Of a DNA stretch of 64,000 nt, positions 24,846-64,000 are shown piece after piece (the first letter of the stretch is position 1; every line of letters begins with the position of its first letter). Source of the stretch: a virus. The notes beneath the pieces are model-generated. The model was not told the DNA's origin, made no database searches, and worked only from the letters and a program-made list of their open reading frames with translations. Made by a program: the position numbers and the translations under genes. Location of the stretch: the IMG/VR virus record IMGVR_UViG_3300042897_000742, positions 1 to 64,000 of that record; one strand, 5' to 3'.

Positions 24846-25230
24846 GGGGGTGACCAGGTTTTGACGGTTAAGCTGAAATTAGGTTACTGATGCAAGCAGG
24901 ATTAGATGGAAATCCTTAAACACCTATCACACAATAAAAGGCGAAGAGAAATCTTCATTCACCTGGGAAGACGCTATGGCTTTCGTAGGTGCTGATTACG
25001 CTGTAGCAGCCTAGTCAGTCTCGCACTCATCGTGAGGTTTCAAAAAGAATGAGAATACAAGGTTTCGTTCAGAGGGCTACCTTATTACAAGTGAACTCGA
25101 CACAGTTATTGGTAACAATGTCAAAATAGGAACCATTTATTTTGGCCATTAAGAAAAATGGCCTAAGCTTGTGAACGAGGGATTTAGGTTCCTTAGTCGG
25201 ACATGGGTTCGAATCCCATCACCTCCACCA
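24846..25230 (+). ncRNA. ssrA: transfer-messenger RNA (tmRNA)
   Basis: The 5' end GGGGGTGACC pairs with CACCTCC at 25220-25226 to form the acceptor stem. The gene encodes its 3' CCA (25228-25230) and has a T arm with TTCGAATC. The tag frame runs from the GGC at 24940 to the TAG at 25012-25014 and codes for 24 residues, starting GEEKSSFTWE and ending GADYAVAA. Typical tags end in ALAA or AVAA, recognised by ClpXP-type proteases. The tag is long compared with the 10 residues of E. coli. tmRNA frees stalled ribosomes and marks their products for destruction. Confidence 0.93.
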
Positions 25231-25234
25231 AAAA

Positions 25235-25287
25235 GGATGCATACAGCAACTTTGGACTAGACTTGTAAACTACAACCCAATGCATCC
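25235..25287 (+). ncRNA. stem-closed spacer RNA, type 1, copy A
   Basis: The spacer after the tmRNA CCA is enclosed by GGATGCAT/ATGCATCC (8 bp, 9 with a flanking A-T). The 5' strand runs into ATACAGCAAC, shared with the copy at 25925. The 53-base element has no reading frame. A structured RNA is inferred from the perfect closing stem and from the second copy. Confidence 0.45.
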
Positions 25288-25294
25288 TGATTCT

Positions 25295-25367
<73 letters not shown>

Positions 25368-25374
25368 CAAAATC

Positions 25375-25386
25375 TCACATATGTGA
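25375..25386. repeat. 12-base palindrome
   Basis: TCACATATGTGA is a perfect palindrome 8 bases after tRNA-Gly and upstream of a possible small gene. It could be a protein-binding site; nothing else supports this. Confidence 0.3.
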
Positions 25387-25402
25387 AACAAACACTATGT
25401 GT

Positions 25403-25423
25403 GTATATATAATTAACAAATAA
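25403..25423 (+). promoter_or_regulatory. late-type promoter-like sequence
   Basis: TATATATAATTAACAAATAAA lies about 30 bases before the short frame at 25435. It fits the late-type box loosely. Confidence 0.35.
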
Positions 25424-25434
25424 AAACAATTTCA

Positions 25435-25530
25435 ATGCAACTGCACGGATGTACATATTGGATTCTTAGTAATGTGGAGAAGAATTTTCCACAAGCGGAT
25501 TCAATTACACCAAGTCCAGGCAGGAGCTGA
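25435..25530 (+). CDS. possible 31-residue peptide or small RNA locus
   Basis: The gap between tRNA-Gly and tRNA-Ser (about 310 bases) holds one short frame, ATG at 25435 to TGA at 25528-25530. It starts MQLHGCTYWILSN and is preceded by a promoter-like box and followed by a strong terminator. The same stretch contains an 8-bp hairpin GTGGAGAA/TTTTCCAC at 25471-25489, so the product may instead be a small RNA of roughly 170 bases. Either way it looks like an independent transcription unit. Confidence 0.3.
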   Translation: MQLHGCTYWILSNVEKNFPQADSITPSPGRS

Positions 25531-25553
25531 TGAGATAAAACACTTACATAATC

Positions 25554-25591
25554 AAGCCTCCTGGATAAAAAATTCCGGGAGGCTTTTTTTA
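25554..25591 (+). terminator. Rho-independent terminator
   Basis: A long stem AAGCCTCC(TGGA)/(TTCCG)GGAGGCTT followed by a run of T ends the small unit upstream and separates it from the tRNA cluster promoter. Confidence 0.88.
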
Positions 25592-25599
25592 TGGGTCTC

Positions 25600-25630
25600 T
25601 TTCAGAAATAGATTGAATGAGTTATATTTG
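25600..25630 (+). promoter_or_regulatory. Bacteroidetes-type promoter of the tRNA cluster
   Basis: TTTC (25600-25603) and TATATTTG (25623-25630) are exactly 19 bases apart. CTCTTTCAGAAAT around the first box is identical to that of the promoter at 28416. The site lies just after a terminator and 23 bases before the boxA-like element. Confidence 0.7.
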
Positions 25631-25652
25631 TTTAGAATAGAATTTCAAATTC

Positions 25653-25667
25653 GTTCTTTGACATATT
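25653..25667 (+). promoter_or_regulatory. boxA-like antitermination element before the tRNA cluster
   Basis: GTTCTTTGACATATT differs at one base from the element before the tmRNA and lies 11 bases before tRNA-Ser. Order promoter, boxA, structured RNAs is the same as in an rRNA operon. Confidence 0.65.
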
Positions 25668-25678
25668 GAGGTACCAAC

Positions 25679-25764
25679 GGAAAGATGGTAGAGTTGGTTG
25701 ATTACACCGGTCTTGAAAACCGGCATACCGCGAGGTATCGGGGGTTCGAATCCCTCTCTTTCCG
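25679..25764 (+). tRNA. tRNA-Ser (TGA)
   Basis: Class II tRNA with long variable arm (CATACCGCGAGGTATCG), acceptor GGAAAGA/TCTTTCC, anticodon loop CTTGAAA, discriminator G as expected for Ser. Confidence 0.95.
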
Positions 25765-25771
25765 CTTAAAT

Positions 25772-25842
25772 TGCCCTCTCGTCTAATGGCAGGACATGTG
25801 GTTTTGGTCCACAGTGTAGAGGTTCGAATCCTTTGGGGGCAA
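25772..25842 (+). tRNA. tRNA-Gln (TTG)
   Basis: Acceptor TGCCCTC/GGGGGCA with one G-T pair, anticodon loop TTTTGGT, T loop TTCGAAT. The 71-base length reflects a short D loop. Confidence 0.92.
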
Positions 25843-25847
25843 CATAT

Positions 25848-25922
25848 AGGGAAGTAGCGTAGCCCGGTTATCGCGCCTGGTTTGGGACCAGGAGATCGCA
25901 GGTTCGAATCCTGTCTTCCCTA
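25848..25922 (+). tRNA. tRNA-Pro (TGG)
   Basis: Acceptor AGGGAAG/CTTCCCT, anticodon stem CCTGG/CCAGG around loop TTTGGGA, T loop TTCGAAT, discriminator A. Confidence 0.93.
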
Positions 25923-25924
25923 CA

Positions 25925-25979
25925 AGGATACATACAGCAAATTTTATCAAACTGCAACTTTGAAGCCAAAACGTATCCT
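25925..25979 (+). ncRNA. stem-closed spacer RNA, type 1, copy B
   Basis: AGGATAC/GTATCCT (7 bp) encloses a ~40-base A-rich loop. The first 17 bases, AGGATACATACAGCAAA, match copy A at 25234 in nearly every position, while the loop interiors differ. Two copies with a kept 5' motif and a changed stem base that stays paired (G39-C83 in A; A30-T74 in B) suggest a selected RNA. Confidence 0.45.
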
Positions 25980-25985
25980 GTATTT

Positions 25986-26058
25986 GCCTCTGTAGCTCAG
26001 TTGGTAGAGCTACTGATTTGTAATCAGTGGGTCGTAGGTTCGAATCCTATCGGAGGCT
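25986..26058 (+). tRNA. tRNA-Thr (TGT)
   Basis: Acceptor GCCTCTG/CGGAGGC, anticodon stem ACTGA/TCAGT around TTTGTAA, T loop TTCGAAT. Confidence 0.95.
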
Positions 26059-26070
26059 CAAACATTATTT

Positions 26071-26144
26071 GGTCCGTTCGTCTAATTGGTTAGGACATCT
26101 CCCTTTCACGGAGAAGCTTACGGGTTCGATCCCCGTACGGACTA
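26071..26144 (+). tRNA. tRNA-Glu (TTC)
   Basis: Acceptor GGTCCGT/ACGGACT, anticodon stem TCTCC/GGAGA around CTTTCAC, T loop TTCGATC. Confidence 0.93.
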
Positions 26145-26150
26145 CAACAT

Positions 26151-26225
26151 TGCGGGGTGGACTGGAGATGGTTCCAGCTCGGTCTCATAAGCCGAACCAC
26201 ATGGGTTCGATTCCCATCCCCGCAA
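26151..26225 (+). tRNA. tRNA-Met (CAT), initiator-like
   Basis: Anticodon loop CTCATAA. The 5' part TGCGGGGTGGA and 3' part CCCCGCAA resemble bacterial initiator tRNA (CGCGGGGTGGA), but position 1 is T and pairs with A72, and the three G-C pairs of the anticodon stem are not complete. A second CAT tRNA with elongator features is at 27107. Initiator identity is inferred. Confidence 0.75.
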
Positions 26226-26229
26226 CAAA

Positions 26230-26324
26230 GGTGGTATCTAGACGAAAATGAAATTCCTGCTGTGAAGTCGACTTAATCAGCATATTCAGAAGTAGAAATG
26301 AAGGATCGCAAATCTTTCGCCACC
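26230..26324 (+). ncRNA. structured spacer RNA (type 2)
   Basis: A ~95-base spacer starts GGTGG and ends CCACC, with an inner hairpin TGCTG/CAGCA (26258-26282) whose loop contains AAGTCGACTT, a 10-base palindrome. No frame or tRNA is present. The closing stem is only 5 bp, so this is weaker than the type 1 elements. Confidence 0.3.
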
Positions 26325-26332
26325 CTCTTATT

Positions 26333-26406
26333 GGCTCGTTAGTAGAGATGGTTACAATGTCGCCCTGTCACGGCGAAGGTCACGGGTTCGAGTCCCGTAC
26401 GGGCCG
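26333..26406 (+). tRNA. tRNA-Asp (GTC)
   Basis: Acceptor GGCTCGT/ACGGGCC, anticodon stem TCGCC/GGCGA around CTGTCAC, T loop TTCGAGT, discriminator G. CCA is encoded (26407-26409), unlike most tRNAs here. Confidence 0.94.
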
Positions 26407-26419
26407 CCAAAAAATGCCG

Positions 26420-26476
26420 AGGTTAATGCATAACCTAAAGTAACACGTACGGTTACACAGTAGGAAGGCTACCTAC
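26420..26476 (+). ncRNA. triple-hairpin spacer RNA with palindromic loops (type 3)
   Basis: Three consecutive hairpins, each a 5-bp stem with a 7-base loop: AGGTT/AACCT with loop AATGCAT, GTAAC/GTTAC with loop ACGTACG, GTAGG/CCTAC with loop AAGGCTA. The first two loops contain self-complementary cores (ATGCAT and CGTACG) that could pair between two molecules. The element fills the spacer between tRNA-Asp and tRNA-Ala. Confidence 0.45.
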
Positions 26477-26481
26477 ACTTT

Positions 26482-26555
26482 GGGGGTATAGCTCAGTTGG
26501 CTAGAGCATCTGCCTTGCACGCAGAGGGTCGTGGGTTCGAATCCCTCTACCTCCA
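26482..26555 (+). tRNA. tRNA-Ala (TGC)
   Basis: Acceptor GGGGGTA/TACCTCC, anticodon stem TCTGC/GCAGA around CTTGCAC, T loop TTCGAAT. The Ala identity pair G3-T70 is present. Confidence 0.95.
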
Positions 26556-26559
26556 CTAA

Positions 26560-26632
26560 GATCTCGTAGCTCAGTTGGTAGAGCAATACACTTTTAATGT
26601 ATGGGCCGCGCGTTCGAGCTGCGCCGGGATCA
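26560..26632 (+). tRNA. tRNA-Lys (TTT)
   Basis: Acceptor GATCTCG/CGGGATC, anticodon stem ATACA/TGTAT around CTTTTAA, T loop TTCGAGC. Confidence 0.93.
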
Positions 26633-26643
26633 CAAAAAAATCG

Positions 26644-26727
26644 TACATCATAGTTTTCCCGTTTAGGATGTAGCTATAAGATGTAAATGTGAAAGGCGCA
26701 ATCGCAGTAGGTTAAGCGATATCCTAC
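26644..26727 (+). ncRNA. structured spacer RNA (type 4)
   Basis: The ~100-base spacer after tRNA-Lys holds hairpin TACATC/GATGTA (26644-26672) and, near the end, either ATCGC/GCGAT (26701-26720) or GTAGG/CCTAC (26707-26727). These last two stems overlap and exclude each other, so the element could switch between folds. No coding frame was found. Confidence 0.33.
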
Positions 26728-26732
26728 AACTT

Positions 26733-26813
26733 GCCGAAGTGGTGGAATGGTATACACGCTGGTCTTAGGAACCAGTGCCTAACGGCTTAAGGGTTCGAGT
26801 CCCTTCTTCGGTA
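26733..26813 (+). tRNA. tRNA-Leu (TAG)
   Basis: Class II tRNA with variable arm TGCCTAACGGCT, acceptor GCCGAAG/CTTCGGT, anticodon stem CTGGT/ACCAG around CTTAGGA, discriminator A as in Leu. It reads CTN codons, not the TTA codon common in this genome. Confidence 0.94.
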
Positions 26814-26818
26814 CTAAT

Positions 26819-26893
26819 GCATCTTTAGCTCAGTTGGTTTAGAGCGTTACCCTTACAAGGTAAATGTCGGTGGTTCGAATCCATCAAGGTGCA
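26819..26893 (+). tRNA. tRNA-Val (TAC)
   Basis: Acceptor GCATCTT/AAGGTGC, anticodon stem TTACC/GGTAA around CTTACAA, T loop TTCGAAT. CCA is encoded (26894-26896). Confidence 0.94.
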
Positions 26894-26895
26894 CC

Positions 26896-27014
26896 AAGAG
26901 ATATAGTGAAGCTGTATGATATGGTCTTAATCCCGCTGACTGTCAAAAAGGCATTAGGAGATTCAGATGTGTTGATTATATCACAGAATGCCCGAAAGAC
27001 CCGAAGTATCTCTT
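26896..27014 (+). ncRNA. nested multi-helix spacer RNA (type 5)
   Basis: Four helices nest in register: AAGAGATA/TATCTCTT (26896-26903 with 27007-27014), GGTCTT/AAGACC (26923-26928 with 26996-27001), GGCATT/AATGCC (26950-26955 with 26987-26992) and TGTG/CACA inside. This ordered nesting over 119 bases is hard to get by chance and makes this the best single candidate for a folded RNA among the spacers. No frame, no tRNA features. Confidence 0.55.
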
Positions 27015-27018
27015 TTAT

Positions 27019-27101
27019 TGGAAGGTGGGTGAGTGGTTAAAACCGGCAGACTGTAAATCTGCTCTCTTCGGAGTACGGCGGTTCGAATCCGTCCCTTCCA
27101 A
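27019..27101 (+). tRNA. tRNA-Tyr (GTA)
   Basis: Class II tRNA, acceptor TGGAAGG/CCTTCCA, anticodon stem GCAGA/TCTGC around CTGTAAA, variable arm CTCTTCGGAG, T loop TTCGAAT. Confidence 0.93.
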
Positions 27102-27106
27102 CATTT

Positions 27107-27180
27107 GGACCTTTAGCTCAGTTGGTTAGAGCATCGGACTCATAATCCGCAGGTCGCAGGTTCGAGCCCTGCAAGGTCCA
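27107..27180 (+). tRNA. tRNA-Met (CAT), elongator-like
   Basis: Acceptor GGACCTT/AAGGTCC, anticodon loop CTCATAA, T loop TTCGAGC. Could instead be an Ile tRNA with lysidine at position 34; sequence alone does not settle this. Confidence 0.85.
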
Positions 27181-27185
27181 CGTTT

Positions 27186-27257
27186 AGTCGATTAGTTCAA
27201 TGGATAGAACACTTGACTACGGATCAAGAGATAAGGGTTCGAGTCCTTTATTGACTA
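27186..27257 (+). tRNA. tRNA-Arg (ACG)
   Basis: Acceptor AGTCGAT/ATTGACT, anticodon stem CTTGA/TCAAG around CTACGGA, T loop TTCGAGT. It would read CGN after A-to-I editing at position 34, not the AGA codon this phage favours. Confidence 0.93.
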
Positions 27258-27262
27258 CTAAT

Positions 27263-27335
27263 GGTGATGTAGCTCAGTCGGTAGAGCAAAGGACTGAAAA
27301 TCCTTGTGTCGGCGGTTCGATTCCGTCCATCACCA
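27263..27335 (+). tRNA. tRNA-Phe (GAA)
   Basis: Acceptor GGTGATG/CATCACC, anticodon stem AAGGA/TCCTT around CTGAAAA, T loop TTCGATT. CCA is encoded (27336-27338). Confidence 0.95.
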
Positions 27336-27337
27336 CC

Positions 27338-27414
27338 AAGTAATAGGTAAGCATCTAAGGGGTCTCCCATGTAATATTGGGGCGTGTCTAACCCAAAGCC
27401 TCTGCTTATTACTT
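27338..27414 (+). ncRNA. stem-closed spacer RNA (type 6)
   Basis: AAGTAATA/TATTACTT (27338-27345 with 27407-27414) continues across a small bulge as AGCA/TGCT (27350-27353 with 27403-27406). Inside is a hairpin TTGGG/CCCAA (27377-27396). The 77-base element sits between tRNA-Phe and tRNA-Asn and has no coding frame. Confidence 0.5.
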
Positions 27415-27418
27415 TTAT

Positions 27419-27490
27419 TCCTCGGTAGCTCAGAGGCAGAGCACATGACTGTTAATCATGGGGTCGGGATATCGTAATTCCCCCGGGGAG
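27419..27490 (+). tRNA. tRNA-Asn (GTT) with atypical T loop
   Basis: Acceptor TCCTCGG/CCGGGGA, anticodon stem CATGA/TCATG around CTGTTAA. The T arm reads GGGATATCGTAATTCCC, so T54 and A58 of the usual TTCGA loop are A and T. All other 21 tRNAs keep a normal T loop. It may be damaged or unusually folded. Confidence 0.8.
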
Positions 27491-27505
27491 CAAAAACGCT
27501 TAATA

Positions 27506-27543
27506 GAACAAAGTACAAGTTCAGAACAGGGTGCGGGTCCTGT
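27506..27543 (+). ncRNA. two-hairpin spacer RNA (type 7)
   Basis: The ~58-base spacer between tRNA-Asn and tRNA-Ile contains GAAC/GTTC (27506-27522) and ACAGG/CCTGT with loop GTGCGGGT (27526-27543). No closing stem is seen. Confidence 0.3.
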
Positions 27544-27548
27544 GACAT

Positions 27549-27622
27549 TGGAATATAGCTCAGTTGGTTAGAGCATTCGTCTGATACGCGAAGGGTCGGC
27601 AGTTCGAGTCTGCCTATTCCAA
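27549..27622 (+). tRNA. tRNA-Ile (GAT)
   Basis: Acceptor TGGAATA/TATTCCA, anticodon stem TTCGT/GCGAA around CTGATAC, T loop TTCGAGT. Confidence 0.94.
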
Positions 27623-27627
27623 CACAT

Positions 27628-27702
27628 GGTGGTTATAGCTCAGTTGGTTAGAGCATCTGATTGTGGTTCAGAAGGTTGTGGGTTCGACTCCCATTAATCA
27701 CC
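27628..27702 (+). tRNA. tRNA-His (GTG)
   Basis: Acceptor GTGGTTA/TAATCAC with the extra G-1 (27628) opposite C73 (27702), the His hallmark. Anticodon stem TCTGA/TCAGA around TTGTGGT. Confidence 0.95.
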
Positions 27703-27708
27703 CATAAT

Positions 27709-27779
27709 GGCACTATGGCCGAGTGGTTAGGTGGAGGTCTGCAAAACCTTCTACACAGGTTCGATTCCTGTTGGTGCCT
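27709..27779 (+). tRNA. tRNA-Cys (GCA)
   Basis: Acceptor GGCACTA/TGGTGCC, anticodon loop CTGCAAA, discriminator T as required for CysRS. Confidence 0.94.
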
Positions 27780-27787
27780 CAATAAAC

Positions 27788-27860
27788 GCGTCTGTAGCTC
27801 AGCTGGTAGAGCACTGGTCTCCAAAACCAGGTGTCGGTGGTTCGAACCCATCCAGGCGTG
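27788..27860 (+). tRNA. tRNA-Trp (CCA)
   Basis: Acceptor GCGTCTG/CAGGCGT (two G-T pairs), anticodon stem CTGGT/ACCAG around CTCCAAA, discriminator G as in bacterial Trp tRNA. Confidence 0.93.
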
Positions 27861-27876
27861 CAAATACTTAAAATGA

Positions 27877-28326
27877 ATGAAGGTGTTTAGAAAGACAGAT
27901 GGAGTTAAGGTTAATGTGATTGATCACACCCTTGAGCAGTTAAAGAATTACCCACATGCATCGATTCACATTGGAACCGATTCACAAAATCATGGTGATG
28001 TGACTATGTACAGTACAGTAATAGCATATCGCTTTGGATCGTCAGGTGTTCATTATATCTTTACTAAACAAAAGATGCCAAAAATCACTGATATGTGGAC
28101 TCGTCTTTGGAAAGAAGCTGAGATGAGTATTGAAACGGCAGAATGGCTTACACAACAAATTAATGTTAAGGTTCAAATTGATATGGACTATAATGGAGAT
28201 GAAGAGCATAAATCTCATAGAATTATTTCCGCGGCAAAAGGTTGGGCAAATTCTTTAGGTTATAAAGTAAATGTAAAACCTAACGAACAGATTGCAACTC
28301 GTGCAGCTGATTATTGCTGTAGATAA
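27877..28326 (+). CDS. DUF458/YkuK-like RNase H-fold protein
   Basis: This 149-residue protein resembles the YkuK (DUF458) family, a predicted RNase H-like nuclease: HIGTDSQNHG at ~31-40 with the first Asp, EAEMSIETAEWL at ~87-98, VQIDMDYN at ~106-113 with a second Asp, then KSHRIISAAKGWANSLGY and VKPNEQIATRAAD. It is embedded in the tRNA array, 16 bases after tRNA-Trp and 1 base before tRNA-Ser (GCT). That suggests action on tRNA or related RNA, but the family function is not firmly known. Confidence 0.75.
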   Translation: MKVFRKTDGVKVNVIDHTLEQLKNYPHASIHIGTDSQNHGDVTMYSTVIAYRFGSSGVHYIFTKQKMPKITDMWTRLWKEAEMSIETAEWLTQQINVKVQIDMDYNGDEEHKSHRIISAAKGWANSLGYKVNVKPNEQIATRAADYCCR

Positions 28327-28327
28327 A

Positions 28328-28412
28328 GGAAGGTTACCCAAGTGGTGAAGGGGGCAGTTTGCTAAACTGTTAGGTCGGTAACGGCGCGAGGGTTCAAATC
28401 CCTCACCTTCCG
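28328..28412 (+). tRNA. tRNA-Ser (GCT)
   Basis: Class II tRNA, acceptor GGAAGGT/ACCTTCC, anticodon loop TTGCTAA, variable arm TAGGTCGGTAACGGCGC, T loop TTCAAAT, discriminator G. Last member of the array. Confidence 0.94.
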
Positions 28413-28415
28413 CTC

Positions 28416-32588: not shown

Positions 32589-32805
32589 GATAGTACAAAG
32601 ACTTCTTGATGAAAGACATATTACTGCAGAAGAAGCAGTGATTCTTTTACAAGCCGAGGTAAATAGAAATCAACCTTTTTATATACCTAGCATGCCAACT
32701 ATTCAACCATATTCTCCTCCATTTAAACCAGGAGACTTGTGGTATACTACTTCATCAACATTAAACACCCCTGTTGCAGGTTCAAAATCAGAAGAGAATG
32801 AATAA
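32572..32805 (+). CDS. small hypothetical protein (77 aa)
   Basis: This 77-residue protein has a helical N-terminal half (TEIVQRLLDERHITAEEAVI) and a Pro-rich half (PSMPTIQPYSPPFKPGDLWY). It overlaps the kinase gene by 8 bases. Function unknown. Confidence 0.5.
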   Translation: MKTVTEIVQRLLDERHITAEEAVILLQAEVNRNQPFYIPSMPTIQPYSPPFKPGDLWYTTSSTLNTPVAGSKSEENE

Positions 32806-33277
32806 AGTAATTTTGGTAGGTAAAGCTGCTGCAGGTAAGGATCATATGAGAAAGGTAATGGAAGGTCGTGGATTTATCTACGGTATTTCTTATACCACTC
32901 GACCGCCAAGAGAAGGTGAGATTGACGGCCAAGATTATTACTTTATGTCAAAAGAACAATTTGATGATGGTATTAAGAATAACTTTTGGTATGAATGGGT
33001 TGAATTCAATGGTTGGTATTATGGAACAAGTTATAAACAGTTCAAGGAACAGTGTAACTTATTTATAATGACACCTAAAGGCATCTCTCATATCAATCCA
33101 ATTGATCGTAAAGAATGTACAATCATTTATCTCAATATGCCAATTGAAGTAAGACGCCAAAGACTTCTTAGCCGTAATATGCCAGGTGATACTTTAGAAC
33201 GTAGAATAGAGGCTGATGAAAAAGACTTTGCTGATTTTACAGACTTTGACATTGAGATAAACAATCATAACTTCTAA
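32798..33277 (+). CDS. guanylate kinase-like nucleotide kinase
   Basis: The start is taken as the ATG at 32798, which overlaps the previous stop, giving 159 residues. The P-loop is GKAAAGKDHM and is followed by YTTRPPREGEIDGQDYYF, the hallmark GMP-binding segment of guanylate kinases (TTRxxRxGExxGxDYxF). The C-terminal half is shortened relative to cellular GMK (~200 residues). It would phosphorylate dGMP/GMP or, like T4 gp1, several dNMPs. It lies beside a thymidylate-kinase-like gene and a dCMP-hydroxymethylase-like gene. Confidence 0.8.
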   Translation: MNKVILVGKAAAGKDHMRKVMEGRGFIYGISYTTRPPREGEIDGQDYYFMSKEQFDDGIKNNFWYEWVEFNGWYYGTSYKQFKEQCNLFIMTPKGISHINPIDRKECTIIYLNMPIEVRRQRLLSRNMPGDTLERRIEADEKDFADFTDFDIEINNHNF

Positions 33278-33291
33278 CATATAAAAATAAA
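33278..33291 (+). promoter_or_regulatory. late-type promoter box
   Basis: CATATAAAAATAAA ends directly at the ATG at 33292, much closer than at other genes, so it may not be a promoter here. Confidence 0.3.
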
Positions 33292-33891
33292 ATGAGTAAA
33301 TTCATTATCATCGAAGGTACCGATAATACCGGTAAAGATACACAACAAAATCTTATTATTAAAAATCTAAAAGATAAGGTATTTCATAAGGTTCATTATT
33401 CATCTTTACCCTTTAAAGATGATGTTGAAATGCATACTTCATATTCAAAGAAAATGTATGAAGATATGTTTAAGATGATGGTTTTGTGTAAAGATCAAGA
33501 TATTAACATTATCTTTAATCGTTCTCATTTAGGTGAAAGTATTTACTCTCCACTTTATCGTGGGTATTCTGGTGATTATGTTTTTGATATTGAAAAAGGT
33601 TTTGTAAATACATTAAGAGAAAATCTTTATCTTATTACTCTAACCAATGATCCTCATACAATTTGGAGTAGAGATGATGGTAAATCATTCTACAAAAATG
33701 AAGAAGGTATTAAAGCAGAGGTTGATGGTTTTATCCGTGCACATCGCTTAAGTAAGATTAAAAATAAACTTCTTCTTAATGTAGGTACTATGAGTGCCGA
33801 TGAAGTCTCCAAAATTATTATTGAGTTTCTATCTCATGAAAATACAATAACTGGGGATCCTAAACAATTATCTATGTTTAGTCATGAGTAA
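33292..33891 (+). CDS. thymidylate kinase-like dNMP kinase
   Basis: This 199-residue P-loop kinase opens with IIIEGTDNTGKDTQQ (residues 5-19), close to the TMK loop EGxDGxGKST but with D in place of S. INIIFNRSHLGESIY (~68-82) fits the TMK DR(Y/H) motif region. It would make dTDP, or the diphosphate of a modified dCMP. It overlaps the following gene by 8 bases. Confidence 0.78.
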   Translation: MSKFIIIEGTDNTGKDTQQNLIIKNLKDKVFHKVHYSSLPFKDDVEMHTSYSKKMYEDMFKMMVLCKDQDINIIFNRSHLGESIYSPLYRGYSGDYVFDIEKGFVNTLRENLYLITLTNDPHTIWSRDDGKSFYKNEEGIKAEVDGFIRAHRLSKIKNKLLLNVGTMSADEVSKIIIEFLSHENTITGDPKQLSMFSHE

Positions 33892-34072
33892 ATGGAGAGA
33901 AGAACGAATGTATGAGATAATGCATCATCTCTGGGATAATCCTAAGTTGATGGAATTATATGAACTCGAAATGAAAAAGGCTCATGCCGAAAAATATGTA
34001 GAAGAGTTCTTTCCTAAAATGGAAAAATGTTACGAAAAAGCTTTAAAAGAATATGAGAATTTACAAAGGTGA
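33884..34072 (+). CDS. small hypothetical protein (62 aa)
   Basis: This 62-residue helical, charged protein (MSKWREERMYEIMHHLWDN...) overlaps both the kinase and the next gene, so it is translated as part of the nucleotide cassette. Function unknown. Confidence 0.55.
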   Translation: MSKWREERMYEIMHHLWDNPKLMELYELEMKKAHAEKYVEEFFPKMEKCYEKALKEYENLQR

Positions 34073-34934
34073 AACATTTGCTGATGTGTATCAAACTGCA
34101 TTAACTGATGTACTCCAAAACCCTGAATATGTTACCTCGCCAAGAGGTATGAAAATTAATGAAGTTACTAATGCTGCATTGGTTATTGAAGATCCTACCT
34201 TTCCTCTTTATGAAAATAATAGAAGGAGTAGTCAATTCAAATATATTGCAGCTGAATTAGTTTGGTACTTTACTGGCCGTAGAGATACTAATTTCATTTC
34301 AAAATTTGCAAAATTCTGGGAACAGATTGATAATGGAAATGGTACGGTAAATTCTGCATACGGTAATCTTATTTTTACAGATAAGAATTCTCATGGTCTT
34401 AATCAATATCAATGGGCATTACAGTCTTTAATTGAAGATAAAGATTCTCGTCAAGCTATTGTACATTTTAATACACCTTCTCATCAATGGAAAGGTAATA
34501 AAGATTTTGTATGTACTCTTACTGGTGTATTTCAGATTCGTGATAATCATCTTAACTTTACAATTGATATGAGATCAAATGATCTTATATTAGGTACACC
34601 AACTGATATTGCATTTTTCTGTCTTCTTCAACAACAGATGTATGAACATCTTAAAAAGTATTACCCAGATCTTGAATTAGGTACATATACTCATATTGTT
34701 CATTCTCTTCATATCTATGAAAGACACTTTACCTTAATAGATGAAATGTTAGATCATCCATTTGAACCAATGAGTTTTCCAGAGATAAGAGAATTCTTAA
34801 TTGATCCTAACGGCAATTCTTTAGAAGGAATTAAAGAAATTGAATCTGAAATAGAATCAGATTCTGAAGTTTTACGAGTTAAAGATGATCCTTTACATCA
34901 ATGGATAACCGATGCGGTTTTCATGGATATATAA
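34053..34934 (+). CDS. dCMP hydroxymethylase-like member of the thymidylate synthase family
   Basis: This 293-residue protein has the thymidylate synthase fold: AAELVWYFTGRRDTNFI (~67-82), catalytic Cys154 in FVCTL, phosphate-binding Arg174 in MRSND, and the H220-I-Y222 motif. The residue aligned with E. coli Asn177, which selects dUMP, is Asp185 in GTPTDIAFF. Asp at this site is the mark of dCMP-specific enzymes such as T4 gp42. The likely reaction is dCMP plus methylene-THF to 5-hydroxymethyl-dCMP, or a methylation variant. A separate, conventional thyA begins at 63662. The product is inferred. Confidence 0.8.
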   Translation: MRIYKGETFADVYQTALTDVLQNPEYVTSPRGMKINEVTNAALVIEDPTFPLYENNRRSSQFKYIAAELVWYFTGRRDTNFISKFAKFWEQIDNGNGTVNSAYGNLIFTDKNSHGLNQYQWALQSLIEDKDSRQAIVHFNTPSHQWKGNKDFVCTLTGVFQIRDNHLNFTIDMRSNDLILGTPTDIAFFCLLQQQMYEHLKKYYPDLELGTYTHIVHSLHIYERHFTLIDEMLDHPFEPMSFPEIREFLIDPNGNSLEGIKEIESEIESDSEVLRVKDDPLHQWITDAVFMDI

Positions 34935-34951: not shown

Positions 34952-35902
34952 ATGAAGTACTTAAAACTGTTTGAAGAATTCTTAAATGAAGCCGCTGAAG
35001 AAACTGGGTTAAAGAAAGTTTATCTAGCCACTCGTCGTGATAGCGGACAAAGATGGTGGTCTTATAAAGGGTTCGCCGGTGATAAATTCTTTATCCAGGT
35101 TACTGAGAATAACATTGATAAGTTAGATATTAATCCTGAGTACCCGGTACTTAATTATCATAGTACCATTGTAGATGAGTTACTAAAGAAGAAAAAGATT
35201 AAAGAAGAAAACATCTATAATCATCCTAAGTATATTCCATTATCAGGTTCTAAGAAAGAATTTCATAAACTCGTAGGGGAGGATGAAAATGTACCTAAGA
35301 CAGTTTATTCAAAGAATGAAGCATTAGAGAAGTTAAATTTTCCTATTATTGCAAAACCTGCAAATGGTCACAGTGGAATTGGAATCCAGGTAATTAAGAA
35401 GCCTGAGTTAATGGAAGAGATTGATGAGAAGATCTTCGATACTTTTTCTGAATATGTAGATAAAGTAGAAGAAATGAGATTCTTTAACTTTAAAGGTCAA
35501 CCTATCTTTTGGATGGAAAGAACACCTGCAAACAGTAAAGCAAAGTCTGGTGATGGCAAGACCGATGAAGAAATGGAATTCAAGTATGCTAAGAGAAATG
35601 TTAATAACATACCAGAAGACTATAAAAAGGTTTTAGAAAAGTATTGCAAAACATTTGAAAAATTTCCCTATATTTGTTTTGATATGATGAAAGACAAAGA
35701 AGGAAAGATTTATGTAATTGAATCGAATGCTCAACCCGGCGTACCGTTCGATAGTACGGTTGAAATCTATAAGAAAGTATATGAAGATTTCTATGGTAAA
35801 CCATTAGACGATAAATCTCTTCAAAAACTAGATAAATACGCAAAAGAAATGGTTGAAAGAACGCTAAAACGCGATAGTGGAAGATTTTCTGTAAAAAAGT
35901 AG
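34952..35902 (+). CDS. ATP-grasp ligase-like protein with capsid-targeting-like N-terminus
   Basis: The start at 34952 gives 316 residues beginning MKYLKLFEEFLNEAAEE, which fits the shared head-targeting pattern with a possible cut after FLNE. An upstream in-frame start would overlap the previous gene. The body has ATP-grasp features: FPIIAKPANGHSGIGIQVIK (~132-151), an acidic loop, and KIYVIESNAQPGVPF (~264-278) with the metal-binding Glu and Asn. ATP-grasp enzymes join carboxylates to amines; the substrate is unknown. A ligase packed in the head and injected with DNA would be notable. Confidence 0.75.
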   Translation: MKYLKLFEEFLNEAAEETGLKKVYLATRRDSGQRWWSYKGFAGDKFFIQVTENNIDKLDINPEYPVLNYHSTIVDELLKKKKIKEENIYNHPKYIPLSGSKKEFHKLVGEDENVPKTVYSKNEALEKLNFPIIAKPANGHSGIGIQVIKKPELMEEIDEKIFDTFSEYVDKVEEMRFFNFKGQPIFWMERTPANSKAKSGDGKTDEEMEFKYAKRNVNNIPEDYKKVLEKYCKTFEKFPYICFDMMKDKEGKIYVIESNAQPGVPFDSTVEIYKKVYEDFYGKPLDDKSLQKLDKYAKEMVERTLKRDSGRFSVKK

Positions 35903-38992: not shown

Positions 38993-39280
38993 ATGGAAAA
39001 GATTAATTTATTTTTTGCAAAACATGGATCAAAAGTAATCACAATTCTTTTGATTCTTTTATACTTTAAATCATGCGGTGTTGATAGCGAATTAGAGAGA
39101 CTTAAAAAGGAAGCTAAAGCAAATACCGAATTGATTAATAAGTTACCATCTGCAGCCGATGTAAAAATTGAAGGTTTAAATGCAGAGAAAAGAATGATCC
39201 AAGCAACAGATCGTAGAATGTTGGATGTACAACGCCAAAACGAAATTGAGAAAGAGATCGAAATATTACAAGGTAAATAA
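38993..39280 (+). CDS. single-TM, coiled-coil protein
   Basis: The start at 38993 gives 95 residues. One TM segment (VITILLILLYFKSCG, ~14-28) is followed by a coiled coil rich in E and K. The layout resembles a small membrane-anchored i-spanin, and the lytic genes are nearby. Function is uncertain. Its stop overlaps the fibre gene start by one base. Confidence 0.5.
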   Translation: MEKINLFFAKHGSKVITILLILLYFKSCGVDSELERLKKEAKANTELINKLPSAADVKIEGLNAEKRMIQATDRRMLDVQRQNEIEKEIEILQGK

Positions 39281-42200
39281 TGGCAAATATCATACCAGGT
39301 GTACCAACGCCAAGTGATCCAACATGTGCTCTTACTATTTGCGGTAGAATTATAGCACAAGTAGATTGCATTAAGTATATAATGCAAGGTACATCTGCAT
39401 GTATTGATATTCAGTTTTTTGGCGCAGATGGTCAACCTCTTGACCTAGATCGTTTTTGCGAAATGCAAATTCAATTAACGAATGAATTTGAATGCGTTGT
39501 TGCAAATTTTTGGTATCCTTCTGTTCCAACTGGATCAAAGGGATTTGATATTGAGATTTTACAATACACTACGACAGGTGGCAATATAGTAAATAAGGGT
39601 CTTCTTAGAATATGTTTATCAACTAACTGTACTCTTACTTCACCTGGTTCTGTTTTTGCAGAAATCATATTAAAAGAATGTTTACTTACTGGTGTTGAAC
39701 AAATTATAACAGGTGTTCCTACACCACCTGAAGCAAACGGGGAAACCTTTGGTATTCCTTGTCTTCAGGTTGCAAATATACTTAATTCAAAAATCGCAAA
39801 GAATGGTGGTGCAGGGGGTTGTTTTCCTGGATACATTCCACCTCAACCAGGCAGTAGTGGAATAGGATATGCAATAGGATCAACTGGAGCAACAGGTATT
39901 CACGGGGCATCCGGTTTACAAGGAGAAGTAGGTTTAACCGGATCTACTGGACAACAAGGATTTATTGGTTCAACTGGGCTACAAGGGAATCAGGGGAATC
40001 AAGGTTTTACTGGATCAACTGGACCACAAGGATTTACTGGATCAACTGGACCACAGGGTGCAGGTGGAACATTAGGTTATTGGGGTAGTTTCTGGAGCGC
40101 GCAAACACAACCTAATCCGGTACCAAATGGCGCTAATGCAATGACATTCAATAATACTGATCCTGATTCTAATGGTGTTTCTATCCAGAATAATTCACAA
40201 CTTACATTTGCATACGACGGTGTTTATAATATTCAGTTTTCTGCCCAGCTTGATAGAGTAGCTGGTCCTGCATCTGCAAATGAAGTAGATATTTGGTTTT
40301 CAAAGAATGGCGTTCCAATACCTGATTCTAATACACATGTCGTTGTTGCAGGAATTACTTCTGCATCTAAAGAAGTAGCTGCATGGAATTATCAACTTAA
40401 ACTTAATGCAGGAGATTACATTGAATTATACTGGTCATGTCCTAACACAAATGTAGAACTTATCTATGTTCCTGCTCAAGTAAGTCCTCTTCGCCCTGGT
40501 GTACCTTCTGTTATTCTTACTGCACAGCAGGTAACATATACTCAAACTGGTGCAACGGGCGCAACTGGTTCACAAGGCGATCAAGGTTTTACCGGTTCAA
40601 CTGGAACACAAGGTTTTACCGGTTCAACTGGAACACAAGGTTTTACCGGTTCAACTGGTCCTCAAGGTGCAGGCGGTACCTTAGGTTATTGGGGTAGTTT
40701 TTGGAGTACACAAACTCAACTTAACCCTGTGGCAGATGGGGCTAATGCAATGACCTTTAATAATACAGACCCAGACTCAAATGGTGTTTCTATTCAAAAT
40801 AATTCACAACTTACATTTGGATATGATGGTGTTTATAACATACAATTTTCTGCTCAACTTGATAGGGTGGCTGGTACGGCATCTGCAAACGAGGTAGACA
40901 TTTGGTTTGCAAAAAATGGAATAGACATCCCAGATTCCAATACTCATGTTGTTGTTGCTGGAATTACTTCTGCATCTAAAGAAGTAGCTGCATGGAACTA
41001 TCAACTTAAACTAAATGCGGGGGACTACATTGAACTCTATTGGTCATGTCCTAATACCAACGTTGAACTTATTTATATTGCACCAGAAGTTAGTCCAGCG
41101 CGACCTGGTGTACCTTCTGCAATTTTAACTGCTCAACAAGTAACATACACACAGGTCGGTGGAACTGGTGCAACTGGTATACAAGGCAACCAGGGTGATC
41201 AAGGTTTTATTGGAGCAACTGGAGCACAAGGTAACCAAGGTGATCAGGGGTTCATTGGAGCAACGGGTTTTGATGGAGCAACTGGAGCACAAGGTAACCA
41301 AGGTGATCAGGGGTTCATTGGAGCAACGGGTTTTGATGGAGCAACGGGTTTTGATGGAGCAACTGGAGCACAAGGTAATCAAGGATTTATTGGGGCAACG
41401 GGTTTTGATGGAGCAACTGGAGCACAAGGTAATCAAGGTTTTATTGGAGCAACTGGGACACAAGGTAATCAAGGATTTATTGGTGCAACTGGTTTTGATG
41501 GATCAACCGGCCCACAAGGCGCGGGCGGCACCATTGGTTATTATGGATCTTTCTATAGCACAGCAATCCAAACCAATGCAGGTGCCTCATCTGCTAATGT
41601 AATTACATATAATAACACTGACATAAGTAATGGTGTAAGTATAGTTTCAAATTCACAAATTACTATCGCTAATCCAGGTATCTATAATATACAGTTTTCT
41701 GCACAACTTAACAAAACAGATAGCGGTGTTGATGAAGCCTATATTTGGTTATCAAGAAATGGTAGTAATGTTCCGGAGTCCAACACTATTGTTGAACTAG
41801 ATAAGAATAATATGAAACAGGTTGCTGCATGGAATTTCCTTGTAGAGACCACCAACCCAAATGAATATTTTGAACTCTATTGGCACAGTACCGATTTAGA
41901 TATAAGACTCTATGCTGAGCCTGGTTCAACTGGACCAACTAAACCTGCGATTCCTTCTGTTATCCTAACAGTTCAACAAGTTACATATACTCAAATAGGA
42001 GCATCTGGTTTAACTGGTGCAACTGGACCTGCTACTTCACTTTATTTACTTGAAGCGTATGCAAATGTGACATACACTTTACCAGGTGGTTTTACTGATG
42101 ATACCTGTAGATATAGTATTGTGAATAATACGGTAAATGTACCAAGTGGTTGGTTTAATACATCAACATATAGATTTACACCTCAAAAGGTAGGTTATTG

Positions 42201-61399: not shown

Positions 61400-61635
61400 G
61401 TCATTTTAGAAATAAATTAGATTCCTTTCATTATCATGAAGCTTTGGACAGAACTGCTATGATATGTGATATGATAGATACATTTTTAATACAACACCCA
61501 GCGAGTAAAGCAGAAAAACAATTTGCTGAAAAATTAGAAGATGCAAGTATCAAATTATTTGAAGCTTATCAAATAATAGGAAGTATTTGTCATAATAAAG
61601 AAAATGAATATGATAACAAACCCAAGACCAAATAA
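61396..61635 (+). CDS. small hypothetical protein (79 aa)
   Basis: This 79-residue helical protein (FHYHEALDRTAMICDMIDTF...) overlaps the previous stop. Function unknown. Confidence 0.55.
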   Translation: MSHFRNKLDSFHYHEALDRTAMICDMIDTFLIQHPASKAEKQFAEKLEDASIKLFEAYQIIGSICHNKENEYDNKPKTK

Positions 61636-61645
61636 AATTGTAAAA

Positions 61646-63478
61646 ATGACAGAAGAAGAATTTTTAGCTGCTGCAGGTTTAACTGAAAGAAACCCAACAA
61701 AACCTGGAATAGCACTAGGATTTTCGGTTGGGCATGATAAAGGAGCAGTACTTATTATAAACGGTAAAATCTCGGTTGGTATTTCTGAGGAAAGATTATC
61801 AAGACTTAAACATGATAAACCTTGGGATCATTCAATACCTTTAGCATCAATTAATTATTGCTTAGATTATGCAGGAATTAGTTATGATGATGTTGATATG
61901 TATTGTTATAATACGGCCGAGGTCGGAAAGCAACCTATTCTTGATATTGAAAATGAATTTCAGTTTTTACTAAGACAACCTTTAAGTAAATTAAAATTCT
62001 TAAATCACCACGAGGCACATGCATTTTCAACTTTCTTTAGTTCTGGTTTAAAAGAAGCCTCCGTTGTGGTTGCTGATGCAAATGGAAACGGAATTATTCC
62101 TGATACTCCTGCTTATGAAGGGTTTGCAAAGAACAATCCAGAGTATCTAAATAATGCCCCTAAGAATAGATTTTGGGCAGAAGGTACATCAATTTATCAT
62201 TTTACTTTAGATGGGTTTAAAGAATTAGAAAAAGACTTCGTTCTTCAACCGCACCCACCTCTTAATGATTTTAATAACAAAGAAAGATTTAATATTGGGC
62301 ATGTTTATGCATATGCCACAATGAAACTTGTTTATAAGTATAATGAAAAAGATCCTAATAATAATTGGCCTGCATCAAGTGCAGGTAAGCTTATGGGATT
62401 GGCTTCATTTGGGAATAAAGGCTGGGTAGATACACAACCTTATCTTTGTGATTATGATGATGTTAATCATACTTTTACAAATGAAGCTGGCAAAATCTAT
62501 AAGGCATATCCAGGCGTAAGTATAGATTCAAACTTTGCAGAAAAAGCAAACATAGCAGCGGTATTTCAACGTGAACAAGAAAGAATGTGTCTTACTGTAG
62601 CCAAAAGAGCTAAAAAGTTATCAGGATCTAAAAACATCTGTTTATCTGGTGGTTCATTCCTAAACTGTAATTCAAATGAACTTATCATTAAGAGCGGTGA
62701 ATTTGATAATTGTTATTTTGTACCGCCGGCAGACGACAGCGGTATTCCTTTAGGGTGTGCATGGTATGCATATCAACAAGTTATGAAAATAACAGATAAC
62801 TATTTTCTTTCACCTTACTTAGGAAAGACATATACCACTCTTGAAATAGAGAGAGACTTCCAAAAATTTGTTAAAGAAGATCCTACTAGGATTAATCATT
62901 TTACTGTTTTTGATCATACCGATGAAGATGTATTAATTACTCATCTTACAGACCTATTAAATTCAAATAAAGTTATAGGTATGCATAGAGAAGGATCCGA
63001 GATTGGTCCTCGTGCATTAGGTAATCGTTCTATTTTAGCATCTCCGATTAAACCTTGGATGCAGAACTATGTAAATATGCATATTAAAAGTAGAGAATGG
63101 TTTAGACCTTTTGCACCTTCTGTATTAGCAGAACGAGTTTTAGATATTTTTGATATTACTGAATTCTCTCCTTACATGCTTATTACATGTAATGTTAAAG
63201 AAAGGTGGAGATCTCGCATACCTGCGGTTGTTCATACCGATAATACTTCAAGAATACAAGCAGTAAGAAGTGATATTAATCCATTCTATCATAAGCTCAT
63301 AACTAAATTTGAACAGTGGACTGGTGTTCCTGTAATTCTAAATACATCGTTTAATGGAGCGCATGAACCTATGGTTGAAACACCATACGATGCATTAAAA
63401 ACTTTTTGGACTTGCAATCTTGACGCTGTATGTATTGGTAATAAACTAATAATTAGGAATTCATACTTTAATAGGTAA
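61646..63478 (+). CDS. carbamoyltransferase (NodU/CmcH/TobZ family)
   Basis: I prefer the ATG at 61646, 10 bases after the previous stop; in-frame ATGs at 61604 and 61610 would overlap that gene. The 610-residue protein has the Kae1-like N-domain with LGFSVGHDKGAVLIINGK, EERLSRLKHD and NHHEAHAFSTFFSSG. The YrdC-like C-domain has LSGGSFLNCNSNE, REGSEIGPRALGNRSI, REWFRPFAPSV and NTSFNGAHEPMVETPYDAL. The enzyme moves a carbamoyl group from carbamoyl phosphate to a hydroxyl. Targets could be a sugar or, given the dCMP-hydroxymethylase-like gene, 5-hydroxymethylcytosine. Confidence 0.88.
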   Translation: MTEEEFLAAAGLTERNPTKPGIALGFSVGHDKGAVLIINGKISVGISEERLSRLKHDKPWDHSIPLASINYCLDYAGISYDDVDMYCYNTAEVGKQPILDIENEFQFLLRQPLSKLKFLNHHEAHAFSTFFSSGLKEASVVVADANGNGIIPDTPAYEGFAKNNPEYLNNAPKNRFWAEGTSIYHFTLDGFKELEKDFVLQPHPPLNDFNNKERFNIGHVYAYATMKLVYKYNEKDPNNNWPASSAGKLMGLASFGNKGWVDTQPYLCDYDDVNHTFTNEAGKIYKAYPGVSIDSNFAEKANIAAVFQREQERMCLTVAKRAKKLSGSKNICLSGGSFLNCNSNELIIKSGEFDNCYFVPPADDSGIPLGCAWYAYQQVMKITDNYFLSPYLGKTYTTLEIERDFQKFVKEDPTRINHFTVFDHTDEDVLITHLTDLLNSNKVIGMHREGSEIGPRALGNRSILASPIKPWMQNYVNMHIKSREWFRPFAPSVLAERVLDIFDITEFSPYMLITCNVKERWRSRIPAVVHTDNTSRIQAVRSDINPFYHKLITKFEQWTGVPVILNTSFNGAHEPMVETPYDALKTFWTCNLDAVCIGNKLIIRNSYFNR

Positions 63479-63669
63479 TGAAGAGGTTTATTGAATTCAC
63501 TCTTATTTGGATAAGTCAAAATATGGCCATACCTTTTTGGATGGTCGGTCATATTCATTTAATGACTTCCGTTTATGAAGATATTCATGAAATCATAATG
63601 AGCGTAGGTATGAATATAGTTGTAGCAATAGGATTTTACTTAGATTGGAAAAAGAATAAAAATGAATAA
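63478..63669 (+). CDS. small membrane protein (63 aa)
   Basis: This 63-residue protein has two hydrophobic segments ([20 protein letters not shown] and [17 protein letters not shown]) and a basic tail. It overlaps the stop of the carbamoyltransferase and the start of thyA. Function unknown. Confidence 0.5.
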
Positions 63670-64000
63670 TTTAGATAAGCAATATCAAGATCTTCTTAAA
63701 ACGATAATAGAACATGGAGTTGTAAAAGAAGACCGAACTAGTGTAGGCACCAAGTCAATTTTTGGTTATACTATTCGTCATAACATGGCGGATGGGTTTC
63801 CTCTTTTAACCACAAAGAAAATGTATTGGAAGGGAATTGTAACAGAGCTTATTTGGTTCCTTCGTGGTGATACTAATATTAAGTTCTTGGTGGATAATGA
63901 CTGTAATATTTGGAACGGCGATGCATATAAAGGATATGAAAAGGAATGTATTGTACATGGTGTAGATCCAATGTCGATGGAACATTTTATCCAAGGAATT
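63662..64000 (+). CDS. thyA: thymidylate synthase (partial, 5' part)
   Basis: An ATG at 63662 opens a frame that runs off the right edge after 113 codons. The product matches Thy[51 protein letters not shown] and [17 protein letters not shown]. It would make dTMP from dUMP. The substrate-selecting Asn and catalytic Cys lie outside the window. A second, dCMP-type member of the family is at 34053. Confidence 0.93.

What the first reader, a model, noticed from the sequence alone, without database searches (positions are those of the whole stretch)
32798..34934. Cassette for a modified cytosine: two dNMP kinases and a dCMP-type hydroxymethylase
Seen: GMK-like, TMK-like and a thymidylate-synthase-family gene in a row. 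In the latter the residue aligned with TS Asn177 is Asp185, the dCMP hallmark. A normal thyA lies at 63662, so this one is free for another job. Inferred: phage DNA carries 5-hydroxymethyl- or further modified cytosine.
Basis: partly seen in the sequence, partly recalled or inferred. Interest (0 to 1): 0.7.

Follow-up and report, generated by a model that had tools for sequence, protein, structure and literature searches.

The report
Huge phage's modified-cytosine gene set
A very large bacteriophage carries an enzyme that, residue by residue, looks like the one phage T4 uses to replace ordinary cytosine by 5-hydroxymethylcytosine, together with two nucleotide kinases, and its close relatives carry the genes that would destroy normal dCTP and attach a sugar to the new base, so its DNA is probably chemically disguised against bacterial defences.

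Summary
GMK-like (32798-33277), TMK-like (33292-33891) and thymidylate-synthase-family (34053-34934) genes stand in a row, conserved in 17/17 viral relatives and under purifying selection. Asp185 aligns with TS Asn177/T4 Asp179, and Thr155 with T4 Thr149. D/T alone also fits the newly described 5-hydroxy-dCMP synthases (RB69 type), but the window enzyme has every tested T4 hydroxymethylase residue that those lack (W82, S94, D145, D171, G175, Y218 equivalents). It is therefore probably a folate-dependent dCMP hydroxymethylase. Near-identical sister contigs (~92% nt), reaching further upstream, add a T4 gp56-like dCTPase beside the DNA polymerase and a sugar kinase / nucleotidyltransferase / glycosyltransferase block. 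A 462-kb relative carries a T4-type beta-glucosyltransferase 1.4 kb from its hydroxymethylase. So glycosylated 5hmC is the best guess; which sugar is unknown. A carbamoyltransferase at 61604 suggested 5-carbamoyloxymethyl-C, but it belongs to the sugar type and lacks the DNA-type signature. Unexplained: a divergent C5-cytosine methyltransferase gene always accompanies the glycosyltransferase (42/42 loci). No chemistry was measured. As a hydroxymethylase cassette this is a new member of a known kind; the glycosyltransferase-methyltransferase pairing may be new.

The parts
32798..33277 (+). GMK-like nucleoside monophosphate kinase (159 aa; an in-frame TTG at 32774 is a possible earlier start)
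   Evidence: Pfam Guanylate_kin 3.5e-21; PHROG 1815 4.3e-35; P-loop, S34/R38/R41/Y50/E69/Y78 of yeast GMK kept, S80->T and D100->T in all family members compared
33292..33891 (+). TMK-like P-loop kinase (199 aa), the better candidate for the hydroxymethyl-dCMP kinase
   Evidence: PHROG thymidylate kinase 8.8e-16; a TMK-like or P-loop kinase also sits directly beside or within about 3 kb of the dCMP-type TS in phage G, Enterococcus 9183 and vipetofem, RB69, Effie, Xp15, Agathobaculum phage and BF503P2
33884..34072 (+). Small conserved ORF (62 aa) of unknown function, overlapping both neighbours
   Evidence: kept at 53-100% identity in the closer relatives, not found in the 65-67% ones
34053..34934 (+). 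Thymidylate-synthase-superfamily dCMP hydroxymethylase (293 aa): C154, T155, D185, E68, W89, S101, Y103, D151, D177, G181, Y222
   Evidence: Pfam 1.4e-25; closest solved relatives MilA CMP-hydroxymethylase 2e-25 and T4 dCMP-hydroxymethylase 1e-23, best thymidylate synthase 1.6e-11; residue table
63662..64000 (+). Context only: start of an ordinary thymidylate synthase gene (continues to 64768 in the record)
   Evidence: Asn177, His147, C-terminal tail
61604..63478 (+). Context only, considered and not assigned to the cassette: NodU/TobZ-type carbamoyltransferase of the sugar class
   Evidence: Pfam 2.8e-63; keeps TobZ G421/R423, outside the clade of TS-linked phage carbamoyltransferases

Best explanation
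The three genes feed a T4-like cytosine-replacement pathway in a very large phage. The TS-family enzyme condenses the one-carbon unit of methylene-tetrahydrofolate onto C5 of dCMP (Cys154 nucleophile, Asp185 protonating N3) and quenches the methylene intermediate with water (Asp151/Ser101), giving 5-hydroxymethyl-dCMP. The TMK-like kinase (and perhaps the GMK-like one) raises it to the diphosphate; a nucleoside diphosphate kinase, probably of the host, makes the triphosphate. In the sister contigs a gp56-like pyrophosphatase would remove dCTP and regenerate dCMP, so that the adjacent family-B polymerase incorporates 5hmC. A phage-made nucleotide sugar and a GT-B glycosyltransferase (a T4-type beta-glucosyltransferase in the 462-kb relative) would then decorate the DNA. 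Shown: homology, residue identity, gene order, selection. Inferred: every catalytic step, the kinase assignment, the presence of the upstream genes in this very genome (its record starts too late to show them), and the sugar.
For: Closest solved relatives are pyrimidine hydroxymethylases, far above thymidylate synthases. Cys/Thr/Asp trio as in T4 gp42, in every relative whose sequence reaches them, and not in the window's own thyA or SPO1 dUMP hydroxymethylase. All tested T4 hydroxymethylase residues W82, S94, Y96, D145, D171, G175, Y218 kept (W89, S101, Y103, D151, D177, G181, Y222), and the TS C-terminal closing tail is absent (roles from PMC6400193). Synteny in 17/17 relatives plus LR756500; purifying selection. 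Sister contigs G002 and G004 carry a T4 gp56-like gene (35% over 111 aa, 2.9e-21) directly upstream of the B-family polymerase. G002 also has kinase / NTP-transferase / GT genes whose homologues adjoin dCMP-type TS genes in XG4, L104, L106, L107, L111, L115 and Enterococcus 9183. LR756500 has PF09198 beta-glucosyltransferase (6.7e-23) 1.4 kb from its TS gene.
Against: No chemical or enzymatic data. The window record holds neither dCTPase nor DNA glycosyltransferase; these lie on sister contigs (~92% nt) beyond its start. No gp56 homologue was found in LR756500. A divergent but catalytically intact-looking C5-cytosine methyltransferase gene is coupled to the glycosyltransferase, which is odd if every C5 is already occupied. 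The GMK-like kinase may be an ordinary dGMP kinase.
Confidence: 0.8

Rival explanations
1. The enzyme is a 5-hydroxy-dCMP synthase (RB69/Mosigvirus type, no methylene group) and the sugar is attached directly to the C5 oxygen, as in 5-ara-dC.
For: These synthases are homologous and share Cys/Thr/Asp; RB69 has a similar cluster (TMK-like kinase, TS homologue, HAD, sugar kinase, NTP-transferase, arabinose-5-P isomerase); sister contig G002 carries a split kinase + NTP-transferase pair.
Against: RB69, X20, Proteus PM2, PhT2 and P10VF share A82/E145/N171/V175 (PTm1 too except K82), and all but P10VF F218; the window family and all its relatives have W/D/D/G/Y as in T4. Only 25.6% identity to RB69 ORF048 against 32-42% to T4/Enterococcus/Xp15 types.
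Confidence: 0.09
2. 5-carbamoyloxymethylcytosine: the carbamoyltransferase at 61604-63478 acts on 5hmC, as in the MetaGPA enzyme.
For: TS homologue with Asp177 plus a carbamoyltransferase in one genome is the published 5cmdC pattern (PMC8670742); Xp15, Effie and BF503P2 have the two genes adjacent.
Against: The window gene lies 27 kb away beside IMPDH and thyA; it keeps G421/R423 whereas all five TS-linked or Xp15-like phage enzymes compared have R423->T (four of five also G421->C) and form a separate clade with support 1.0; 21% identity to the Xp15 enzyme; its phage relatives are cyanophage/pelagiphage enzymes, one with sugar genes beside it; absent from LR756500.
Confidence: 0.05
3. The enzyme is a dCMP methylase giving 5-methyl-dCMP (Xp12-like 5mC phage).
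For: Asn177Asp alone turns E. coli TS into a dCMP methylase (cited in PMC8670742).
Against: The TS C-terminal tail is absent, the Trp83 position is Ile92, and the T4 water-activating Asp145 is kept as Asp151 where TS has Leu143, all on the hydroxymethylase side. The Xp12 enzyme itself was not compared.
Confidence: 0.04
4. The TS-family gene is a second thymidylate synthase or a decayed paralogue without a role in DNA modification.
Against: Non-TS active site in every relative whose sequence reaches it, strong purifying selection, association with dCTPase and DNA-type glycosyltransferases.
Confidence: 0.02

Closest known systems
T4 dCMP hydroxymethylase gp42 (with gp56 dCTPase, gp1 dNMP kinase, alpha/beta-glucosyltransferases)
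   Same: Same superfamily, same catalytic and specificity residues including D145/S94/W82/D171/G175 and no TS tail; a gp56 homologue on sister contigs; a beta-glucosyltransferase homologue in the 462-kb relative
   Different: 32% identity; kinases are GMK- and TMK-like and sit directly upstream of the hydroxymethylase; C-terminal extension of about 50 aa; the genome also has its own thyA; no T4-type GT found on the closest contigs
Phage G gp315-gp319 region
   Same: TMK-like kinase near a dCMP-type TS homologue with D/T; kinase, NTP-transferase and alpha-GT-like genes nearby
   Different: 34% identity; dCMP deaminase between; GTs are of T4 alpha-GT type
Enterococcus phages vipetofem/VPE25 and 9183/Planchet (Andrewesvirinae)
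   Same: Kinase-TS(D/T)-dUTPase-GT operon; the 9183 GT and NTP-kinase fusion are homologous to the sister-contig GT cassette
   Different: 33-42% identity; compact operon; no C5-methyltransferase gene in the stretch seen
Xp15 / Acinetobacter Effie / Bacteroides BF503P2, 5-carbamoyloxymethyl-dC type
   Same: Kinase beside a dCMP-type TS homologue
   Different: They carry an adjacent DNA-type carbamoyltransferase (R423->T) that this phage lacks
RB69/Mosigvirus 5-hydroxy-dCMP synthase and arabinosyl-dC pathway
   Same: TS superfamily with Asp/Thr; TMK-like kinase, sugar kinase and NTP-transferase around it
   Different: Folate-site residues W82/D145/D171/G175 lost there, kept here

Membership tests
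dCMP hydroxymethylase (T4 gp42 type) | Catalytic Cys with Thr after it, and Asp at the TS Asn177 position | tested here: met
   C154/T155/D185; same in the relatives that reach these positions
dCMP hydroxymethylase (T4 gp42 type) | Folate-site and water-activating residues W82, S94, Y96, D145, D171, G175, Y218 | tested here: met
   W89, S101, Y103, D151, D177, G181, Y222 (roles from PMC6400193)
dCMP hydroxymethylase (T4 gp42 type) | Lacks the TS C-terminal closing tail | tested here: met
   No alignment to E. coli TS residues 261-264
dCMP hydroxymethylase (T4 gp42 type) | Methylene-THF-dependent conversion of dCMP to 5-hydroxymethyl-dCMP | not testable with these tools
   needs enzyme assay
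5-hydroxy-dCMP synthase (RB69 type) | A82, E145, N171, V175, F218 (pattern derived here from RB69, X20, Proteus PM2, PhT2; mostly shared by PTm1 and P10VF) | tested here: not met
   window has W, D, D, G, Y
Canonical thymidylate synthase | Asn177, His147 and C-terminal tail | tested here: not met
   Asp, Thr, no tail; the separate thyA meets all
dUMP hydroxymethylase (SPO1 gp29 type) | Asn at 177 and at 147 | tested here: not met
   Asp and Thr
5hmC carbamoyltransferase (5cmdC) | Carbamoyltransferase beside the dCMP-type TS, differing from TobZ at W408/G421/R423 | tested here: not met
   27 kb away; M/G/R against V or I or L / C or G / T in the TS-linked clade (TobZ numbering assumes a 6-residue tag)
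T4 beta-glucosyltransferase (PF09198) | PF09198 or PF11440 match in the genome | tested here: inconclusive
   Met in LR756500; none in the window record or sister contigs, which are fragments
T4 gp56 dCTPase | gp56 homologue in the genome | tested here: inconclusive
   Met on sister contigs G002 and G004 (2.9e-21 to T4); that region lies before the start of the window record

The most novel reading that the evidence does not exclude
The pathway is a new kind of cytosine hypermodification: hydroxymethylase-made 5hmC is glycosylated by a new GT-B transferase with a phage-made nucleotide sugar, and a divergent C5-cytosine-methyltransferase homologue that always accompanies this transferase does a further step on the base, for example an exchange at the hydroxymethyl carbon or a methylation of leftover cytosines that the glycosylation depends on.
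Probability: 0.25. Interest if true: 0.75.

Novelty: new member of a known kind. Interest (0 to 1): 0.47.

Why it matters
If right, a group of very large phages known here only from assembled sequence carries glycosylated 5hmC, which would protect its DNA from restriction and hamper Cas nucleases, sequencing and engineering. The residue test gives a simple rule for telling hydroxymethylases from 5-hydroxy-dCMP synthases, which database annotations confuse. The recurrent placing of a TMK-like kinase beside dCMP-type TS genes points to the hydroxymethyl-dCMP kinase of phages without T4 gp1. The glycosyltransferase / C5-methyltransferase pairing is a concrete target for finding a new DNA base.

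Tried and rejected
Carbamoyltransferase at 61604 as 5hmC carbamoyltransferase: rejected on residues, clade, distance and absence in LR756500. ATP-grasp gene downstream of TS (34952-35902) as a base-modifying ligase: set aside, because it starts with a capsid-targeting-like leader and is not detected in L010 and LR756500. Glycosyltransferases at 45.7-48.5 kb as DNA glycosyltransferases: no PF09198/PF11440 match in the record and they lie beside a CMP-sugar synthetase, so surface or virion glycan genes are likelier. Beta-GT of LR756500 searched in the window record and 18 relatives: none. AlphaFold model of the TS enzyme: pLDDT 47, not used. The paper on glycosylated 5-hydroxycytosine biosynthesis (10.1101/2025.06.16.659550) is not held, so the 5-hydroxy-dCMP signature is derived here from homologues of RB69 ORF048 and rests on PMC13390438 for the activity. 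First Pfam call failed on a wrong frame.

Full report
WHAT IS THERE. The window is bases 1-64000 of a 93.9-kb viral record with large-phage features: T4-like terminase, tail sheath, clamp loader, topoisomerase pair, 22 tRNAs and a tmRNA. At 32798-34934 stand a GMK-like kinase, a TMK-like kinase, a 62-aa ORF and a thymidylate-synthase-family gene, all on the plus strand and nearly touching.

RESIDUES. On an alignment with E. coli ThyA, T4 gp42, SPO1 gp29 and phage homologues the enzyme has the catalytic Cys154, then Thr155 (TS His147, T4 Thr149) and Asp185 (TS Asn177, T4 Asp179). Positions 147 and 177 are the two that best separate modified from unmodified contigs in the MetaGPA study (PMC8670742). 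All relatives that reach these positions keep Thr and Asp; the window's own thyA has His and Asn, SPO1 dUMP hydroxymethylase Asn and Asn. The closest solved structures are MilA CMP-hydroxymethylase and T4 dCMP-hydroxymethylase, then, fourteen orders of magnitude weaker than the best of these, thymidylate synthases.

HYDROXYMETHYL OR HYDROXY. Recent work shows that RB69-type phages use a TS-superfamily 5-hydroxy-dCMP synthase (PMC13390438), so Asp/Thr alone cannot decide. Using the T4 ternary-complex paper (PMC6400193) I tabulated cofactor- and water-site residues. RB69 ORF048, Serratia X20, Proteus PM2 and Acinetobacter PhT2 all read A82, T94, E145, N171, V175, F218; the more distant PTm1 and P10VF keep E145, N171 and V175. 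The window enzyme, its relatives and the enzymes of T4, Xp15, 9183, vipetofem, XG4, L104 and L106 read W82, S94, D145, D171, G175, Y218 (phage G differs only at S94). The TS tail is absent. This favours a folate-dependent hydroxymethylase. The signature is mine, from few sequences, and untested by experiment.

CONSERVATION. Topoisomerase genes - GMK - TMK - TS - phosphoesterase - sigma factor - exonuclease order recurs in all 17 IMG/VR relatives as far as each contig reaches (65-100% TS identity), and in the 462-kb LR756500 with about 5 kb inserted between the kinases. dN/dS is 0.04-0.23 for the three genes. A TMK-like or other P-loop kinase is also next to or near the dCMP-type TS in phage G, RB69, vipetofem, 9183, Effie, Xp15, BF503P2 and the Agathobaculum phage, so it is the likelier hydroxymethyl-dCMP kinase. 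The GMK-like enzyme keeps phosphate-site residues and the guanine-contact Glu but has S80T and D100T; its substrate is open.

THE REST OF THE PATHWAY, OUTSIDE THE WINDOW. The record begins 34 kb before the TS gene. Sister contig G002 (about 92% nucleotide identity) reaches 78 kb upstream. It carries a 164-aa homologue of T4 gp56 dCTPase-dUTPase (35% over 111 aa; 2.9e-21) directly before a B-family DNA polymerase, and a block HAD phosphatase - sugar kinase - nucleotidyltransferase - glycosyltransferase - NDP-sugar epimerase - divergent C5-cytosine methyltransferase. The glycosyltransferase models as GT-B (pLDDT 72, pTM 0.76), with a viral protein labelled DNA beta-glucosyltransferase as second-best viral match. 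Its relatives in isolate genomes are in Enterococcus 9183/Planchet/TJE4 and Pseudoalteromonas XG4. In 9183/Planchet it lies in a kinase-TS-dUTPase-NTP-transferase/kinase-GT operon; in XG4, L104, L106, L107, L111 and L115 the order is TS - NTP-transferase/kinase - GT - C5-methyltransferase. LR756500 instead has a T4-type beta-glucosyltransferase (PF09198, 6.7e-23) 1.4 kb downstream of its TS gene. Glycosylated 5hmC is therefore the best guess for the end product; the sugar is unknown.

THE CARBAMOYLTRANSFERASE. A TobZ/NodU-like gene at 61604-63478 looked like the 5hmC carbamoyltransferase of PMC8670742. The TS-linked phage enzymes (Xp15, Effie, BF503P2) and two Xp15-like ones form a clade with support 1.0 and have Thr at TobZ R423; the window enzyme keeps Arg and Gly, is 21% identical to Xp15's, and groups outside them. 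LR756500 lacks it. I read it as sugar carbamoylation, in line with the phage's glycan genes.

UNEXPLAINED. In all 42 loci found with the glycosyltransferase, the C5-methyltransferase homologue lies just downstream, with or without the epimerase between; many loci are close relatives, so this is perhaps five lineages. Its PLIGG, Cys, ENA and QxRxR motifs are kept. If all cytosines carry 5hmC it would have no ordinary substrate. Either replacement is partial, or it acts on other DNA, or it does something new to 5hmC. In the window's own family it is present on every contig that reaches far enough (G002, G003, G004, G006, G016).

VERDICT. Observation confirmed, interpretation supported with the refinements above. 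As a hydroxymethylase cassette it is a new member of a known kind; modified cytosine in jumbo phages is already discussed (PMC7824862). The extended cassette may hold something new.

Noticed in passing
sister contig G002:22226-23488 (L061:3226-4488; also L076-L117): Divergent C5-cytosine methyltransferase homologue always just downstream of the GT-B glycosyltransferase (42/42 loci), in distant phages directly beside the dCMP-type TS gene; role unexplained.
   Followed up: partly
window 34952, 38372, 56729; record 77229, 77827, 78136: Six ORFs start with a common leader of the form MK-x-I-K-x-F/Y-E-x-F-L-N-E (0 expected after shuffling), recalling the capsid-targeting leader of T4 internal proteins; the ATP-grasp protein after the TS gene is one of them and may be packaged in the head.
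   Followed up: partly
window 49143-49862; record 93235-93858; G002:12778-13518: CMP-sugar synthetase, arabinose-5-phosphate isomerase-like and, by eye on the sister contig, KDO-8-P-synthase-like genes: perhaps a phage-encoded KDO-type sugar pathway, with several glycosyltransferases at 45717-48546.
   Followed up: no
window 24846-28413: tmRNA and 22 tRNA genes covering nearly all amino acids in one array.
   Followed up: no
window 61604-63478: Sugar-type carbamoyltransferase beside thyA, shared with close relatives but absent from the 462-kb relative LR756500.
   Followed up: yes
window 39280-42441: 1053-aa protein with collagen-like Gly-X-X repeats alternating with a repeated globular domain; probably a fibre.
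   Followed up: no
L123:3495-8235 (phage Effie), L036:3333-7269 (Xp15), L124:3486-6762 (BF503P2): Isolated phages with DNA-type carbamoyltransferase, kinase and dCMP-type TS in one cluster: ready subjects to look for 5-carbamoyloxymethyl-dC in a real virion.
   Followed up: partly
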